Assembly: GCF_021032705.1 (NCBI RefSeq)
Contig: NZ_JAHVXI010000004.1
Span: 248,001 to 312,000 of the forward strand
DNA from: Psychroserpens luteolus
GTDB lineage: Bacteria > Bacteroidota > Bacteroidia > Flavobacteriales > Flavobacteriaceae
Length of the DNA stretch: 64,000 nt
Reading direction: 5' to 3'
The position numbers and the translations under genes were made by a program. A model generated the notes under the pieces. That model was given only the letters and a program-made list of their open reading frames with translations, was not told the DNA's origin and did not search any database. Below are positions 57,004 through 63,083 of this stretch, in pieces; positions within the stretch are counted from its first letter, which is position 1; every line of letters begins with the position of its first letter.

Positions 57004-57346
57004 ATTGGTATTATTAAGTTAAGTAAACTTTTTGAAAATAGACTTAAGCTTCGGTATTCTCTAAAAAAATCGGATGATTGACAATTATTAACAAGAAAAA
57101 CTCTTTTAAGCATGATTAATACGTATTGTTTATTCATTAAAAAAACAAGTAGTTTTCAAATACTAACCACGTATATTTTCAAAGCATAGGTGTTTGTACT
57201 TGTTTAAAGAAGAGGTGATTGCGCTCTAAAAGGTATTGTGCTAATTTCAGAAATTTGAATTGTATTCATTGATGCTTTTATCATTTAATACTGGCGCAAA
57301 CCGAAAAGCCAACAGAAAAGAGTAGGTAACTCTAAAATATTATATT
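57004..57346 (+). other. intergenic region upstream of the 118-residue gene
   Basis: This 343 bp AT-rich stretch separates the Crp/Fnr gene from the small gene at 57347. I see no coding frame and no confident promoter or RNA. A leader before the ATG (GTAGGTAACTCTAAAATATT) is A/T-rich as usual here. I see nothing further in it. Confidence 0.45.
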
Positions 57347-57703
57347 ATGGGATTTTATAAGAAACAACCTGTTGATGCAAGTAAGACAACAGCGACGTAT
57401 TTATGGACTGGTTTACGTACACCTGGAATTTTTGTTATTGAAGTGGAAGGTGACGCACAAAACTATTCATATGGATTTAGTTTAACACGAGATGCTCACT
57501 TTGTAGGAGGATTAAAAATAGACTCTATGGGATGGACTGGTCCATTAGGACAAGGAACAACACCTTACAAAGTTAAAGGCTCATTTCCAGGACAGTTTAC
57601 TCCAAAGATTGTCATCTCTGGTGCTAATGGTGATTTTATAGTTGATGTAAAAGAAATACCATCAGATCAAGTAGAGGACTATGTTAAATCTAAAGTTGGT
57701 TAA
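57347..57703 (+). CDS. hypothetical protein, 118 residues
   Basis: A soluble beta-rich protein (TYLWTGLRTPGIFVIEVEG, YSYGFSLTRDAHFVGGLKID, FPGQFTPKIVISGANGDFIV) with no signal peptide. Gly- and aromatic-rich strands suggest a compact sandwich. No family recognised. It has its own terminator and lies beside the boundary of the inserted segment. Confidence 0.72.
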   Translation: MGFYKKQPVDASKTTATYLWTGLRTPGIFVIEVEGDAQNYSYGFSLTRDAHFVGGLKIDSMGWTGPLGQGTTPYKVKGSFPGQFTPKIVISGANGDFIVDVKEIPSDQVEDYVKSKVG

Positions 57704-57726: not shown

Positions 57727-57757
57727 AAAAAGCCAAAACATTCGTTTTGGCTTTTTT
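57727..57757 (+). terminator. terminator of the 118-residue gene
   Basis: AAAAAGCCAAAAC and GTTTTGGCTTTTT make a 13 bp stem with an ATTC loop, then T. Before the insertion at the htpG end it would have been the convergent terminator for htpG as well. Confidence 0.88.
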
Positions 57758-57786: not shown

Positions 57787-57820
57787 TTACTTAATCATAT
57801 CATAGCTACGCTTGATAAAG
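57787..57820. repeat. 34 bp direct repeat, distal copy of the htpG 3' end
   Basis: Exact copy of 61194-61227, which is the last ten codons plus stop of htpG. Beyond it, with a one-base gap, 9 of the next 12 positions also agree with htpG. It contains TATCA (57798-57802) and TGATA (57813-57817) flanking a 10-base spacer, the sort of arm arrangement seen in tyrosine-recombinase sites. Confidence 0.9.
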
Positions 57821-57845
57821 CTTTTTTAGCTCTATGTAAATTAGA

Positions 57846-60800
57846 CTATTTAAATATTTTAACTCTAAATTCTTTAATTATTGCCGTCCAAAAAGCGTCC
57901 TTTTCTTCATCTTTTAATGCTTTTATTGCCCCATTCATTATTTTATCATTGTCTAGTGATACTATTTTACCTCTCTGAGCAGCTTGATACTTTCCAATTT
58001 TAGAATTTTCCCAATCACAAGACTTTATTATTATTGGTATTATTATTTTATTTTGTGCAATCGCTTTTTCAATTTCGATATACTTTATGTACTTTGTATT
58101 AAGAAACTTGACACTAACTAGGCATACCATTATATCACATTCATCAATCTCTCTTTTTATAGTTTCATCCCACTCATTACCAAATTCAATCTCTCTACAA
58201 TCAAAAGTAACAAGACCCTCATCTTTCAATGTAACTAAATGATCTTGAAAGTCTTTTAAATAATCCAAATCAAATTTGGAATATGAAATAAATATTTTTT
58301 TTGGTGGATTCATTATTTTTTTAGTTTTTAAATTTTGTAAATTATTTATTTCAGAAGTTGATTTTAAAACTCCTGCCAAACCTACATTATATAATAATTG
58401 TTTAATCAAAATTCTTTCATTGCTCTCATTACAAGTAACCGATGAGTTTTCACCTTTTTGGGACCATTCTATTAGTTTATGATATTTGAATTTAGTTATT
58501 TCTATCGATTCTTTGCATATGGAACATATACATGGGACCTCAATTATGGCCTCGACACCTTTATATTCATCGGTAATGTTTTCTAATGCATCGTTAATTA
58601 ATATTATCAAACCTCGTGCATCTGTCCCTTTCGCTTTAATCGAAATTTTTCTATTATAAAAGTCTTCTTCTACCTGTGCAATTGCAGTATTGTTTTTAAA
58701 CTTAAAGTTAACAGCATTATTCCATACCTTATTATCATTCTCAATGTATTTACTGAGTTCCGCACTAAGTTGATTGACCATTCCTCTTGGCATGAAATCA
58801 AATATGTACTCAATACATAAACAATTTTCATCATTTTTCCACTTTTCTTCTACTGGCATTGATATTAGACGAGCAGGTATAATATAACTTTGCTTTTTAT
58901 GTTTTTTTGCAAATGATATTTTAAATATTTCGAGCATTTTTTTTAATATGAAATGCTTGTCATTGTACATTTTTTCATGCCATAACCTCTTAAAGTCTTC
59001 AGGTTTAATATGACCATGCCTTGATTGAATTTGTTTATCGTCAATGATAAGATAAACAGCATTCATTGCCCATTGCGGTTCTAATATTACCCAGTTCACC
59101 AATTCCTCGTTGTTAGAATACCATAACACAACGCCAATATCATGAAGAAATCGACAACAATCTCCAAAATCATCTGGCTCTGAAAAACTGTCAGGACTAA
59201 TTTCAGAACAGATTTTAATAAATGATTCGAAAGAAATGCATGATTGTTTTTTTGACTCTTTGGCAAGCTGGTCTCTTACAAGTGACCAAGATTTTGGAAC
59301 TTCTCTGCCGTAGTGTGGTAATGATATTATTTGATTTACTATAGTTTTTTTTACTTTTTCTAAACCTTCATTATTGTTTGGTAGATTGATTTCATAATAA
59401 GGTTTTAACTGAGTCTTTATAATATTAAAATTATCATTTGCGATGAAATTACCTAAATCGTTCCATGGAGATTTATTTCCATCATGACATGTTTGTCCAA
59501 TAATGATTGGACTATTACCCCCAAACTGATATATAGTTGGAATCCAATAATCAAAATTATGATGAGCTAATCTAGTTGTTGCCAGTAAAACGAAAACAGA
59601 ATTTTCAGTAATAAAAAATCTGTGTACTGGATAGTATACGTCCTGACCTCCGAAATCCCAAATATGAGCTATGTGTTTTTTTTTATTTTTCTCAATGAAA
59701 TTCCAATCATTTATTTCTATTCCTCTAGTTCTTTTATCTTTTCTGGGTAAACTTGATTTTTCATTTATCAATCTTCTTTGTAAAGAAGTTTTACCAGCGC
59801 TCCCTTCACCTACCATAGTCAATTTTACCTCATATATATAATCGATGCCTTCTTTTTCAATCTTTTCAAAATATCTATGGATTGCTTTCTTTCCTTGACT
59901 AACTATTTCAATCGGTGGACTTTTTAAAGGATTATTATGTAGTGTGATTGTGTTATCCTTATAACCAAATTGATCCCATGAAATATTCATGTCAAAATCT
60001 AAGACCCACTTGGGTAATGTCTCAATAGGATTTTCTTGAAGTTGAAGTTGATTCAATTGTTTCAAATCCTTCAAACTTTCTATGTTTTGAATCCTATTAT
60101 TACTCAAATTGAGTTGTGTTAGATGTTTGTGAGTGTCTAGTGCATTAATATCTATAATACTATTATCCTGTAAGTCTAATCTATATGAGAAATTTAGACC
60201 TTTAAGAAAGTCAATGTTACTTATACCACAGTTCCCCAAACTCAAAGAATCCAATTTTGCAATATACTTTATTGGAGAAAAGTCCTTAATCTGATCATTT
60301 GATATTAGCCAGAGAGTTGACAGATTTTCTAATTTTGGTAGATGACGAATGTCCGTTATATCGTTTGACCCTAAATTTATTGTTTCCAACTTTTTTAGGT
60401 TGGATAAATTACTTATTTCTTTAACATTGTTATTATGTAATGAAATTCTTCTGGCATTTTTGAAGCCTTTCAAAAAAGAAATATCAACAATACTGTTTCC
60501 ATTAAGCTCTAACTCGACAATACTGTCTTTAAAAGAGGCAGAAGCAAGTGCTATAAAGTCTACTGTCGGACAAGCATGAATTCCTAAAAATTGTAACTTT
60601 AGTAGTTTTAAAATTGGTTTGATATTTATCAACTCCAGCTTTACAAGTGATAACTTTATCAAATTCTTCAAATTTTTCAAAAAATCAATACTTTCGATTT
60701 TACAATGAGATATTTCTAGGTGTTCTAAAGAAGTAAATTTGCCTAATGAATCACTATCTTCAAGATCGCAATTGTCTAATTCCAGTTCCTTTAAAAAATG

Positions 60801-61043
60801 GAAATTCTTTAGACTATTAGATTTCGAAATTTGAATGTTGGAAATGCTCAAATATTTTAAATTACTAAAAAGTAAAAGTTCTTGAGGAAAAGGTTCTTTA
60901 ATATTATTTATGATAGAAAGTGAAATGACTTCCCTTTTTTCATTTAAAGAATATGAATATGTAGATTTTCTTTTTTCAAATTGAACTTCAGTCAATTTTG
61001 TGTCTAATTTTTCTTGTATTTTTTCAATCAGGGATATGTCCAT
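57846..61043 (-). CDS. LRR-Roc-COR-TIR protein (Roco GTPase with TIR domain), candidate defence protein
   Basis: A 1065-residue protein. Residues about 55-345 are leucine-rich repeats (for example LNLSNNRIQNIESLKDLKQL), with an LRR cap (ETLPKWVLD). The Roc GTPase domain spans about 403-575 with P-loop GEGSAGKTS (412-420) and switch II DFGGQ (463-467). The COR dimerisation domain spans about 576-830, followed by a Cys-rich zinc-like patch (CICSIC, 838-843, and C871). A C-terminal TIR domain (about 915-1060) begins KKIFISYSKFDLDYLKDF; Glu990 in YIKYIEIEKAI aligns with the NADase catalytic Glu of bacterial TIR proteins. Predicted role: LRR sensing, GTPase switch, TIR-mediated NAD loss. It is the sole gene of a segment inserted at the htpG end. 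Substrate or trigger is unproved. Confidence 0.9.
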   Translation of the reverse strand: MDISLIEKIQEKLDTKLTEVQFEKRKSTYSYSLNEKREVISLSIINNIKEPFPQELLLFSNLKYLSISNIQISKSNSLKNFHFLKELELDNCDLEDSDSLGKFTSLEHLEISHCKIESIDFLKNLKNLIKLSLVKLELINIKPILKLLKLQFLGIHACPTVDFIALASASFKDSIVELELNGNSIVDISFLKGFKNARRISLHNNNVKEISNLSNLKKLETINLGSNDITDIRHLPKLENLSTLWLISNDQIKDFSPIKYIAKLDSLSLGNCGISNIDFLKGLNFSYRLDLQDNSIIDINALDTHKHLTQLNLSNNRIQNIESLKDLKQLNQLQLQENPIETLPKWVLDFDMNISWDQFGYKDNTITLHNNPLKSPPIEIVSQGKKAIHRYFEKIEKEGIDYIYEVKLTMVGEGSAGKTSLQRRLINEKSSLPRKDKRTRGIEINDWNFIEKNKKKHIAHIWDFGGQDVYYPVHRFFITENSVFVLLATTRLAHHNFDYWIPTIYQFGGNSPIIIGQTCHDGNKSPWNDLGNFIANDNFNIIKTQLKPYYEINLPNNNEGLEKVKKTIVNQIISLPHYGREVPKSWSLVRDQLAKESKKQSCISFESFIKICSEISPDSFSEPDDFGDCCRFLHDIGVVLWYSNNEELVNWVILEPQWAMNAVYLIIDDKQIQSRHGHIKPEDFKRLWHEKMYNDKHFILKKMLEIFKISFAKKHKKQSYIIPARLISMPVEEKWKNDENCLCIEYIFDFMPRGMVNQLSAELSKYIENDNKVWNNAVNFKFKNNTAIAQVEEDFYNRKISIKAKGTDARGLIILINDALENITDEYKGVEAIIEVPCICSICKESIEITKFKYHKLIEWSQKGENSSVTCNESNERILIKQLLYNVGLAGVLKSTSEINNLQNLKTKKIMNPPKKIFISYSKFDLDYLKDFQDHLVTLKDEGLVTFDCREIEFGNEWDETIKREIDECDIMVCLVSVKFLNTKYIKYIEIEKAIAQNKIIIPIIIKSCDWENSKIGKYQAAQRGKIVSLDNDKIMNGAIKALKDEEKDAFWTAIIKEFRVKIFK

Positions 61044-61118
61044 TATAATAATATTAATTTAGTAAAAAAATGGTCTATTTTGAATGCTAAATTAACGTTT
61101 TCAACTGTGCGATAAAAT

Positions 61119-61132
61119 ACGTAGTTCTACGT
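61119..61132. repeat. palindrome upstream of the Roco-TIR gene
   Basis: ACGTAG and CTACGT flank TT (ACGTAGTTCTACGT). It lies about 76-90 bp before the ATG on the minus strand, in the promoter zone, and could be an operator. No second copy is visible in the spacer. Confidence 0.5.
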
Positions 61133-61140
61133 AAAAAATA

Positions 61141-61166
61141 AAACCACCTCGATTATGAAGTGGTTT
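61141..61166 (-). terminator. terminator of htpG
   Basis: On the minus strand AAACCAC and GTGGTTT pair with an internal mismatch, followed by a T run. It lies 28 bp after the htpG stop, on the inserted side of the repeat, so insertion has supplied a new terminator for htpG. Confidence 0.78.
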
Positions 61167-61193
61167 TAAATTATTTAGGTGTTTGAGTAATTA

Positions 61194-61227
61194 TTACTTA
61201 ATCATATCATAGCTACGCTTGATAAAG
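61194..61227. repeat. 34 bp direct repeat, intact copy at the htpG stop
   Basis: Begins exactly at the htpG stop codon and runs into the coding region. Identical to 57787-57820. Confidence 0.9.
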
Positions 61228-63083
61228 TTTGTCAACTCTTCACCTTTAAGTAAACCTTGAGATAAACGCGCTAAGTCTAAACTTTGATTAATCAAACGTT
61301 CTTGTTTCTTTTTGGTTTTGGTATTGAGTATGTCACCAACCAATTCTGAGTTGGTATTGACCACAAGATTATACATCTCTGGCATATTACCCATACCAAA
61401 CATACCACCGCCTCCGCCAGTTTGTTGCATCTCTTTCATACGACGCATAAACTCGGGTTGTGTGATGATAAATGGTGATGCATCACTGTCCATTGCCTCT
61501 AATTGTACAGAAAATTTTTCCGCAGGAATAACTTCTTTTAATAACTCATCCAATTTCGTTTTTTCTTCTTCAGATAATTTTGAAATAGACGTGTCTTCTT
61601 TCTTGATTAAGTTATCTATATGATCTCCATCGACACGAGCAAAAGAAATATTCTCTTTGGTCGTTTCTAGTTTCTGAATCAAGTGTGAAACAATTGGTGA
61701 ATCTAATAATAACACTTCGTAACCTTTAGCTTTTGCAGCTTCAATATAAGAATGCTGTGCATCTGTATCAGACGCATATAAGATTACCAATTTATCATCT
61801 TTATTGGTTTGTTTGGCTTTAATCTTATTATATAATTCTTCATAAGTGTAGTACGTGCCATCAACTGTTGGATATAAAGCAAATGCATCGGCTTTATCAA
61901 AGAATTTTTCTTCGGAAAGCATTCCGTATTCAATAACGATTTTGATATCATCCCATTTCTTCTCGAAATCTTCACGATTAGCATTGAATAAAGATTTCAA
62001 CTTATCTGCCACTTTACGTGTGATATATGATGAAATTTTCTTTACAGCACCATCAGCTTGTAAATAACTACGAGAAACATTTAACGGAATATCTGGTGAA
62101 TCGATCACACCTCGAAGCATGGTTAAAAACTCAGGAACGATTCCCTCAACATTATCGGTAACAAATACTTGATTTTGATATAATTGAATGCGATCTTTTT
62201 GAATGTTTAGATCGTTCGTCATTTTTGGGAAATATAAAATCCCAGTTAAATTGAAGGGGTAATCAACATTAAGATGAATGTTAAATAAAGGCTCTTCAAA
62301 TTGCATTGGATACAACTCTCTGTAGAAATTTTTATAATCATCCTCTTCCAAATCTGTTGGTTGTTTTGTCCAAGCCGGATTTGGATTGTTGATGATGTTG
62401 TCTATTTCTTGAGTAGGCGCTGGGTCTTCCTCTTTTGCACCTTCTGGTTTTGGAAGCGTTTCAGTTTTCATTCCAAATTTGATTGGAATAGGCATAAACT
62501 TATTATACTTTGACAGCAGTTCACCAATACGACCTTCTTCTAAAAACTCTGTAGAGTCTTCAGCAATATGAAGGATAATCTCAGTTCCTCTTTCAGTTTT
62601 ATCCGATTCTTCTAGAGTAAATTCAGGAGATCCATCGCAGGTCCAATGTGCAGCAGGTTCATCTTTATGCGACTTAGTAATAATTTCTACTTTTTCAGCA
62701 ACCATAAAAGCAGAGTAGAACCCGAGTCCGAAATGACCAATAATTCCAGAGTCCTTTGCAGCATCTTTATACTTGTCTAAGAATTCTTCGGCTCCAGAAA
62801 ATGCTACTTGGTTAATGTATTTCTCAACCTCTTCTGCTGTCATTCCTAAACCTTGATCTATAATATGAAGTTTTTTAGCATCCTTATCGATTTTAACTTC
62901 AATTTGCGGATTCCCATATTCACTTTTCGAATCACCAATACTGGTGAGATGTTTTAGCTTAAGTGTAGCATCTGTAGCATTACTTATCAACTCACGTAAA
63001 AAGATTTCGTGGTCGCTATACAAGAATTTTTTAATGAGCGGAAAAATATTTTCTACCGATACATTAATGTTTCCTTTTGTCAT
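61194..63083 (-). CDS. htpG: molecular chaperone HtpG (Hsp90)
   Basis: A 629-residue Hsp90. The ATP-binding domain has IFLRELISNATDATLKLKHL, IIDQGLGMTAEEVEKYI and GHFGLGFYSAFMVAEKVEI. The middle domain has LPLNVSRSYLQADGAVKKIS, and the C-terminal dimer domain ends with a Gly-rich MQQTGGGGGMFGMGNMP. Full length and normal. Its last ten codons and stop (from 61194) are the intact member of a 34 bp direct repeat whose second copy lies beyond the Roco-TIR gene, so the gene end has been used as an insertion site without being damaged. Confidence 0.96.
   Translation of the reverse strand: MTKGNINVSVENIFPLIKKFLYSDHEIFLRELISNATDATLKLKHLTSIGDSKSEYGNPQIEVKIDKDAKKLHIIDQGLGMTAEEVEKYINQVAFSGAEEFLDKYKDAAKDSGIIGHFGLGFYSAFMVAEKVEIITKSHKDEPAAHWTCDGSPEFTLEESDKTERGTEIILHIAEDSTEFLEEGRIGELLSKYNKFMPIPIKFGMKTETLPKPEGAKEEDPAPTQEIDNIINNPNPAWTKQPTDLEEDDYKNFYRELYPMQFEEPLFNIHLNVDYPFNLTGILYFPKMTNDLNIQKDRIQLYQNQVFVTDNVEGIVPEFLTMLRGVIDSPDIPLNVSRSYLQADGAVKKISSYITRKVADKLKSLFNANREDFEKKWDDIKIVIEYGMLSEEKFFDKADAFALYPTVDGTYYTYEELYNKIKAKQTNKDDKLVILYASDTDAQHSYIEAAKAKGYEVLLLDSPIVSHLIQKLETTKENISFARVDGDHIDNLIKKEDTSISKLSEEEKTKLDELLKEVIPAEKFSVQLEAMDSDASPFIITQPEFMRRMKEMQQTGGGGGMFGMGNMPEMYNLVVNTNSELVGDILNTKTKKKQERLINQSLDLARLSQGLLKGEELTNFIKRSYDMIK

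What the first reader, a model, noticed from the sequence alone, without database searches (positions are those of the whole stretch)
57787..61227. An LRR-Roc-COR-TIR gene sits in a 3.37 kb segment inserted at the 3' end of htpG, bounded by exact 34 bp repeats
The stretch 61194-61227 (htpG stop codon and last codons) recurs identically at 57787-57820. Between the copies lies one gene for a Roco-TIR protein and nothing else. htpG stays intact and gains a terminator at 61141-61166, while the older terminator at 57727-57757 would have served it before. Site-specific integrases use gene ends this way, but no integrase is present, so this looks like a minimal cargo moved in trans or an element that lost its mobility gene. 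I did not find an earlier description of the htpG end as such a site, and cannot check.
Basis: partly seen in the sequence, partly recalled or inferred. Interest (0 to 1): 0.9.

Follow-up and report, generated by a model that had tools for sequence, protein, structure and literature searches.

The report
Defence-like gene inserted behind htpG
A marine Psychroserpens bacterium has gained a single immune-type gene by an insertion that copied the last 34 letters of the chaperone gene htpG, and some related bacteria show similar copied htpG ends with other genes or none between them, so this gene end looks like a recurring landing place whose enzyme is unknown.

Summary
57787-57820 and 61194-61227 are identical (34 bp). 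The 3,373 bp between them hold one long gene, LRR-Roc-COR-TIR (1,065 aa). The genome is a Psychroserpens (Flavobacteriaceae). The nearest relative held (G006, htpG 97% identical) has a clean empty site: one copy, running directly into the 57727-57757 terminator. None of the 22 other Psychroserpens genomes has a second copy. The segment contains the lowest-GC 3.2-kb window of its contig. So it is a recent insertion.

It is not unique. Second copies of the htpG end, 34 to about 145 nt long, occur in four more of 286 Flavobacteriaceae with a matched htpG end and in two of 80 named loci, with other cargo or none. 0 of 1,317 other gene ends show this at a fixed threshold (565 of them from two homologous contigs). 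In Winogradskyella thalassocola the distal copy carries the native context, so there the proximal end and terminator came with the insert.

No integrase lies in any of these segments, and searches for an htpG tail on viruses, phages and plasmids gave no mobile carrier. Recombination between htpG tails is likely. Whether an unlinked integrase or general homologous recombination did it is open.

The parts
61194..63083 (-). htpG (HSP90 chaperone), intact; its last 34 bp are the proximal repeat copy
61194..61227 (-). proximal copy of the 34-bp repeat (last 10 codons plus stop of htpG)
57787..57820 (-). distal copy of the 34-bp repeat; resumes the native downstream sequence seen in G006
57821..61193 (.). 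inserted segment, 3,373 bp, 28.8% GC (contig 33.8%)
57846..61043 (-). LRR-Roc-COR-TIR (Roco-TIR) gene, 1,065 aa
61141..61166 (-). proximal terminator hairpin AAACCAC..GTGGTTT, of the type usual behind htpG in relatives
61118..61133 (.). palindrome TACGTAG-TT-CTACGTA behind that terminator; an intergenic palindrome of the genus, role unknown
57727..57757 (.). native terminator shared with the convergent gene 57347-57703; directly follows htpG in G006 and, in similar form, in G004
57347..57703 (+). convergent 118-aa gene, native neighbour (100% identical in G006, 86% in G004, 94% in L090/G010)

Best explanation
A recent, clean insertion of a one-gene cassette. Incoming DNA carried the end of an htpG gene from a relative, the terminator that followed it, and the Roco-TIR gene. 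Recombination between the htpG tail on that DNA and the resident htpG tail inserted the whole. htpG was refitted with an equivalent 3' end and terminator, and the resident tail with the old terminator was pushed 3.4 kb away. Shown: the insertion, the empty site, the single gene, and the recurrence of copied htpG ends in other genera. Inferred: tail-to-tail recombination, preferably of an excised circle, by a recombinase encoded elsewhere (a tyrosine recombinase acting in trans or since lost is my slight favourite over RecA). The cargo is most likely an immune protein: LRRs sense, the Roc GTPase with COR switches, the TIR acts on NAD+ (family knowledge, untested).
For: Empty site in G006 with one copy and a contiguous right flank. 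Differences to G006 are spread evenly over htpG (0-6 per 100 bp), so no long imported tract. 1 of 23 Psychroserpens has a second copy. The lowest-GC 3.2-kb window of 910 in the contig lies in the segment. Two or more copies in 5 of 286 Flavobacteriaceae with a matched end, this genome included (details), and in 2 of 80 named loci. Against this 0 of 1,317 other gene ends. Fisher p 0.0004 without the discovery genome, or 0.003 against only the 752 ends. L131: the distal copy has the context that directly follows the single htpG in two sister species; its two tails differ at 5 sites in the last 49 nt, all silent or in the stop codon, so the new tail comes from a working htpG. The htpG-type terminator is in 69 of 109 htpG downstreams but at five places in the 367-kb contig, the insert's own included. 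The order stop, terminator, palindrome also stands directly behind htpG in L132 and G440.
Against: No integrase in any of the seven duplications; no tail copy beside any of the four tyrosine recombinases of this genome. No exact htpG-tail pattern in IMG/VR. Phage and plasmid hits of the peptide search: one opened record holds a whole htpG, two opened records have no annotation, three more are labelled htpG, one has no label, and 15 weak hits in Lak phages (E 0.9-2) were not opened. Repeat lengths vary. In G264 and G215 the copies share host-specific wording and terminators, which fits local duplication. No strain with Roco-TIR behind htpG was found.
Confidence: 0.6

Rival explanations
1. General homologous recombination: DNA from a relative with htpG followed by Roco-TIR entered (transformation, conjugation) and recombined by RecA in the htpG tail, as a circle by single crossover or by one homologous and one illegitimate joint. 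No dedicated recombinase.
For: Variable repeat length; htpG-type terminator beside both copies in L131, G215 and G264; no integrase in the segments; copies in G215 and G264 share wording found in none of 109 other tails.
Against: No imported tract in htpG beyond the last ~50 nt in G000 or L131; 34 bp is short for RecA (recalled); bias to htpG over other gene ends; no strain found with the gene behind htpG and no distal tail.
Confidence: 0.35
2. The segment is ancestral and G006 and G004 lost it by recombination between the repeats.
For: Deletion between 34-bp repeats would leave the same scar.
Against: G004, more distant (htpG 81%), has the same uninterrupted htpG-terminator-gene order; 22 of 22 other Psychroserpens lack the second tail; low GC of the segment.
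Confidence: 0.05
3. Transposon or IS-type insertion with an unusually long target duplication.
For: Direct repeats at both ends, clean empty site.
Against: No transposase, no long terminal inverted repeats; the repeat ends exactly at the htpG stop codon; tail copies of other lengths at the same gene end elsewhere.
Confidence: 0.04
4. The other htpG-end duplications are unrelated local tandem duplications, and only G000 and L131 are insertions of foreign DNA.
For: G264 (units of 261 and 264 bp) and G201 (95 bp) hold no gene over 60 aa; no clean empty site was found for G215, and none was sought for G081 or L109.
Against: G201 shares the distal native context with the cargo-bearing L131; G215, G081 and L109 have genes between the copies; the bias to htpG needs explaining in any case.
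Confidence: 0.2

Closest known systems
Additive flexible genomic islands bounded by repeated tRNA 3' ends (Methylopumilus fGI-2, PMC10872708, passages seen)
   Same: Repeats of a gene's 3' end in varying number, cargo of very variable size (330 bp to 42 kb there), same site in several strains
   Different: There the last 20 nt of tRNA-Lys; here a protein gene, longer and unequal tails, 0.1-3.4 kb with none to three genes in the cases seen
Integrase-type genomic islands in protein-coding genes, e.g. dusA (PMC4482086, search listing only)
   Same: Site in a conserved protein-coding gene, cargo of various kinds
   Different: No integrase in the segment here; dusA is used within its 5' end; htpG was not found as such a site in the two searches made
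Prokaryotic Roco proteins such as the Chlorobium-type chains 6hlu and 3dpu (the Chlorobium label is recalled)
   Same: LRR-Roc-COR order, phmmer E 1e-95 to 6hlu
   Different: C-terminal TIR domain; single-gene cargo of an insertion
Thoeris ThsB TIR (PADLOC PDLC00420)
   Same: TIR stretch matches at 3.5e-17
   Different: Fused to LRR-Roc-COR; no second gene in the segment

Membership tests
Tyrosine-recombinase genomic island at a gene 3' end | direct repeats, gene end restored, clean empty site | tested here: met
Tyrosine-recombinase genomic island at a gene 3' end | integrase gene in the element | tested here: not met
   one long ORF in the segment
Tyrosine-recombinase genomic island at a gene 3' end | same site used by other elements | tested here: met
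   4 further of 286 genomes, 2 of 80 named loci; two of these six hold no gene
Tyrosine-recombinase genomic island at a gene 3' end | constant core repeat | tested here: not met
   tails of 34 to about 145 nt, (all include the last ~34 nt)
Tyrosine-recombinase genomic island at a gene 3' end | excised circle | not testable with these tools
   needs reads or PCR
IS or transposon | transposase and terminal inverted repeats | tested here: not met
Integron cassette | attC site | not tested
   no attC model was run; integron-type integrases lie within 10 kb behind htpG in 3 of 80 loci (motif search)
Roco protein family | Roc followed by COR | tested here: met
   PF08477 74.0 bits, PF16095 115.7, PF25497 80.7
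Thoeris | ThsA partner beside a ThsB-type TIR | tested here: not met
   one gene only in the segment; ThsA was not sought elsewhere in the genome
TIR NADase | catalytic glutamate and NAD+ cleavage | not testable with these tools
   TIR_2 47.1 bits; the fold model was too poor to use

The most novel reading that the evidence does not exclude
Flavobacteriaceae exchange single genes as minimal cassettes, each made of an htpG tail, a terminator and cargo, with the htpG 3' end as a family-wide landing site. The cassettes carry no recombinase and are moved either by an unlinked enzyme or by the host's own recombination, the conserved tail serving as the shared handle.
Probability: 0.22. Interest if true: 0.8.

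Novelty: new variant of a known kind. Interest (0 to 1): 0.55.

Why it matters
Immune-type genes spread fast between bacteria, often without a visible vehicle. A housekeeping gene end that recurrently carries copies of its own tail around otherwise unrelated cargo, with a clean empty site to compare, gives a place where integrase-free gene gain can be tested directly. It also gives a simple search handle (a lone htpG tail) for finding such cargo.

Tried and rejected
Rejected. An integron origin: integron-type integrases lie 137, 944 and 4,786 bp behind htpG in 3 of 80 loci, with no tail copy in the blast that I kept (L149 has one weak row). The 424-aa tyrosine recombinase, the only one of four here without an evident counterpart in G006 (judged from the listed sizes and scores), sits beside metal-efflux-like genes and has no tail-like sequence above shuffled scores in the 36 kb around it. 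The short gut 'phage' record MT837238.1 with an htpG-like tail is unverified and unannotated; set aside. A third terminator copy in G215 is not a tail copy. Long imported htpG tract: not seen. A 12-bp likeness of the insert's left end to L131: score 16 against 15 for the next locus, not pursued (which stopped on a script error before its control).

Retracted by my own check: I first read the palindrome before Roco-TIR as an operator of a response regulator. One search shows that of 56 occurrences 35 lie between convergent genes, 16 between genes in one direction, 3 between divergent genes and 2 at a locus edge; the clusters stand behind the 3' end of that regulator gene. So it behaves as an intergenic palindrome and says nothing about regulation.

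Inconclusive: which copy in G000, G215 or G264 is native from tail sequence alone. AlphaFold of the TIR part alone: mean pLDDT 45, not used. TIR part against PDB by sequence: no hit.

Rows dropped and limits: one search also listed eight loci with weak downstream rows (E 0.001-0.009: L104, L112, L120, L147, L149, L158, L159, L162) and five with weak upstream control rows (L105, L114, L130, L132, L148); I counted only L131 (5e-23) and L109 (4e-13). Degenerate tails are missed by the pattern search; its list of places was cut, its table of counts was not. The 397-genome and 80-locus samples overlap in part. The 565 control ends come from two homologous contigs. One search shows repeats only as overlaps of blast blocks; gaps with unaligned bases on both sides were not searched for edge repeats, and one contig-end overlap of about 3 kb was left out. 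G440 is no clean empty site for G215, since the genes behind differ. For Roco-like matches in the family, distance to htpG is known to me for G412, G292 and G024 only; in the genus all four other genomes have theirs on another contig or far from htpG.
Full report
What is there. The proximal copy is the last ten codons and stop of htpG. Between the copies lie 3,373 bp with one long gene, 57846-61043 (-), 1,065 aa. Pfam finds LRRs, Roc (74.0 bits), COR-A (115.7), COR-B (80.7) and TIR_2 (47.1), all over cut-off. By sequence the nearest solved proteins are bacterial Roco chains (6hlu, E 1e-95), and the TIR stretch matches PADLOC's ThsB profile (3.5e-17). The gene has 29.0% GC; 3.2-kb windows of its 367-kb contig average 33.7% (sd 1.6), and the lowest of 910 windows lies in the segment (a second dip near 58.4 kb of the contig is close behind). 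The ORF list shows no second long gene in the segment, and ARAGORN finds no tRNA in the window.

Insertion, not ancestral repeats. In all 22 other genus genomes the htpG end was read, and none has a second copy of it (up to 2 mismatches). G006, whose htpG is 97% identical, has one copy that runs straight into the 57727-57757 terminator and the 118-aa convergent gene. A blast of G006 against the window gives two blocks that overlap in G006 by 37 bp, the repeat. G004 (81%) has the same gene order without the segment. Of 23 gaps listed over the 367-kb contig against G006 (one contig-end overlap left out), this is the only one whose blocks overlap by more than 13 bp. Differences between G000 and G006 are spread evenly over htpG (0-6 per 100 bp), so no long htpG tract came with the insert.

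Recurrence. A degenerate pattern for the htpG end was matched in 286 of 397 Flavobacteriaceae genomes; five have more than one match: G000, G081, G201, G215 (two each) and G264 (three). A further order-wide draw of 395 genomes, 39 with a match, gave no new case, nor did 10 genomes of G215's genus, 6 with a match. The copies lie in one orientation just behind htpG. G215: 2,334 bp apart, about 145 nt of tail plus terminator, ORFs of 154, 239 and 250 aa between, the last a weak trypsin-like match (Pfam E 0.004, below cut-off) that also hits defence-associated profiles (RT-Protease_XI 4e-9). G081: 2,384 bp, degraded tail, a 603-aa protein with a type IX secretion tail. G201: 95 bp, no gene. G264: units of 261 and 264 bp, no ORF of 60 aa or more. 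Among 80 named loci with up to 10 kb downstream, two have one: L131 (Winogradskyella thalassocola, ORFs of 167 and 440 aa) and L109 (degraded tail, ORF of 213 aa). As control, 752 other gene ends in the same loci and 565 in the contigs of G000 and G006 gave none at up to 7 of 34 mismatches within 4 kb; htpG in the same loci gave 1 of 73. Leaving out the discovery genome, 5 of 358 against 0 of 1,317 has Fisher p 0.0004, and against the 752 alone 0.003. The htpG samples overlap in part, the pattern search uses another threshold, and the two contigs are homologous, so these values are approximate.

Which copy is new. In L131 the distal tail is followed by a stretch that, in W. ludwigii (L134) and W. 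sediminis (L128), directly follows the single htpG; G201's distal copy has the same context. The distal copy of L131 ends about 185 bp before the match to the Crp-type gene; in the rows with nothing between, that distance from the htpG stop is 154-193 bp in eight and 215-279 bp in three, two genomes appearing twice. So in L131 the distal copy is the native end, and the proximal tail and terminator came with the insert. Its two tails differ at five sites in the last 49 nt, all silent or in the stop codon, as expected if the new tail came from a working htpG of a relative. Against that, the nearest sisters do not agree on which tail is closer, and upstream of the differences both copies share a word present in 3 of 109 tails, L131 included. 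In G000 the same reading is favoured by the terminator type: AA[AG]CCAC..GTGG[CT]TT occurs in 69 of 109 htpG downstreams but at five places in the contig, the insert's own included; the similarity scores themselves only just single it out (26.6 against 25.6 for the next place).

How it works. The pieces fit recombination between an htpG tail on incoming DNA and the resident tail. A site-specific enzyme in trans explains the exact ends, the restored gene and the bias to htpG. It does not explain the unequal tails, nor the absence of an htpG tail beside any of the four tyrosine recombinases here or in IMG/VR. RecA-type recombination explains the unequal tails and the htpG-type terminators, but 34 bp is short for it, and L131 shows a switch within about 50 nt of the stop. 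I keep both open, with a slight lean to an unlinked enzyme. The cargo's role as an immune switch (LRR sensor, Roc-COR GTPase, TIR effector) is inferred from its families.

The palindrome. TACGTAG-NN-CTACGTA stands 74 bp before the Roco-TIR start and directly behind the proximal terminator. Its 18-bp form is found in 21 of 23 Psychroserpens, with no hit for the reversed control pattern. Where I could place it (56 occurrences of the 16-bp form in two contigs and 21 loci), none is inside an ORF and 35 lie between convergent genes, often in clusters of two to four behind a 211-aa response-regulator gene. I had taken it for an operator; the positions do not support that. The order htpG stop, terminator, palindrome also occurs in Bizionia echini (L132) and in G440, which fits the view that the left end of the insert comes from behind an htpG.

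Novelty. Gene-end islands with repeated tRNA tails, including very small ones, are in print (PMC10872708, passages). I found no paper naming the htpG end as such a site in two searches of the held library; the one hit mentions htpG for another reason (passages). Subscription papers are mostly not held. A search for Roc-COR, TIR and anti-phage together gave no paper.

Noticed in passing
window 61118-61133; also G000:C11:1158464-1159073: Intergenic palindrome TACGTAG-NN-CTACGTA, its 18-bp form in 21 of 23 Psychroserpens, mostly between convergent genes and clustered 2-4 times behind a 211-aa response-regulator gene. Role unknown.
   Followed up: partly
G006:C2 about 498900-502500 (behind secA): The sister genome G006 has a different 1,208-aa gene behind secA with LRR-like and TIR stretches matching Roco-TIR, the same palindrome between secA and it, and no secA tail copy.
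   Followed up: partly
L114 10338-11405; L149; L152 11133-12200: Integron-type tyrosine recombinases behind htpG in 3 of 80 loci (Wocania and two Psychroserpens); in Wocania small genes with repeated attC-like sequences follow.
   Followed up: partly
window 57727-57757: The loop of the shared terminator hairpin is inverted between G000 and G006 (GAAT against ATTC on the same strand) while the stem is unchanged.
   Followed up: no
window 57291-57328 (+): Rfam DUF805b RNA motif (38.4 bits, over gathering) just before the 118-aa gene, which has no Pfam match.
   Followed up: no
htpG-crp interval in Winogradskyella/Psychroserpens loci: The stretch between htpG and a Crp-type regulator varies from about 150 bp to 7.8 kb, mostly by presence or absence of genes without tail copies.
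   Followed up: partly
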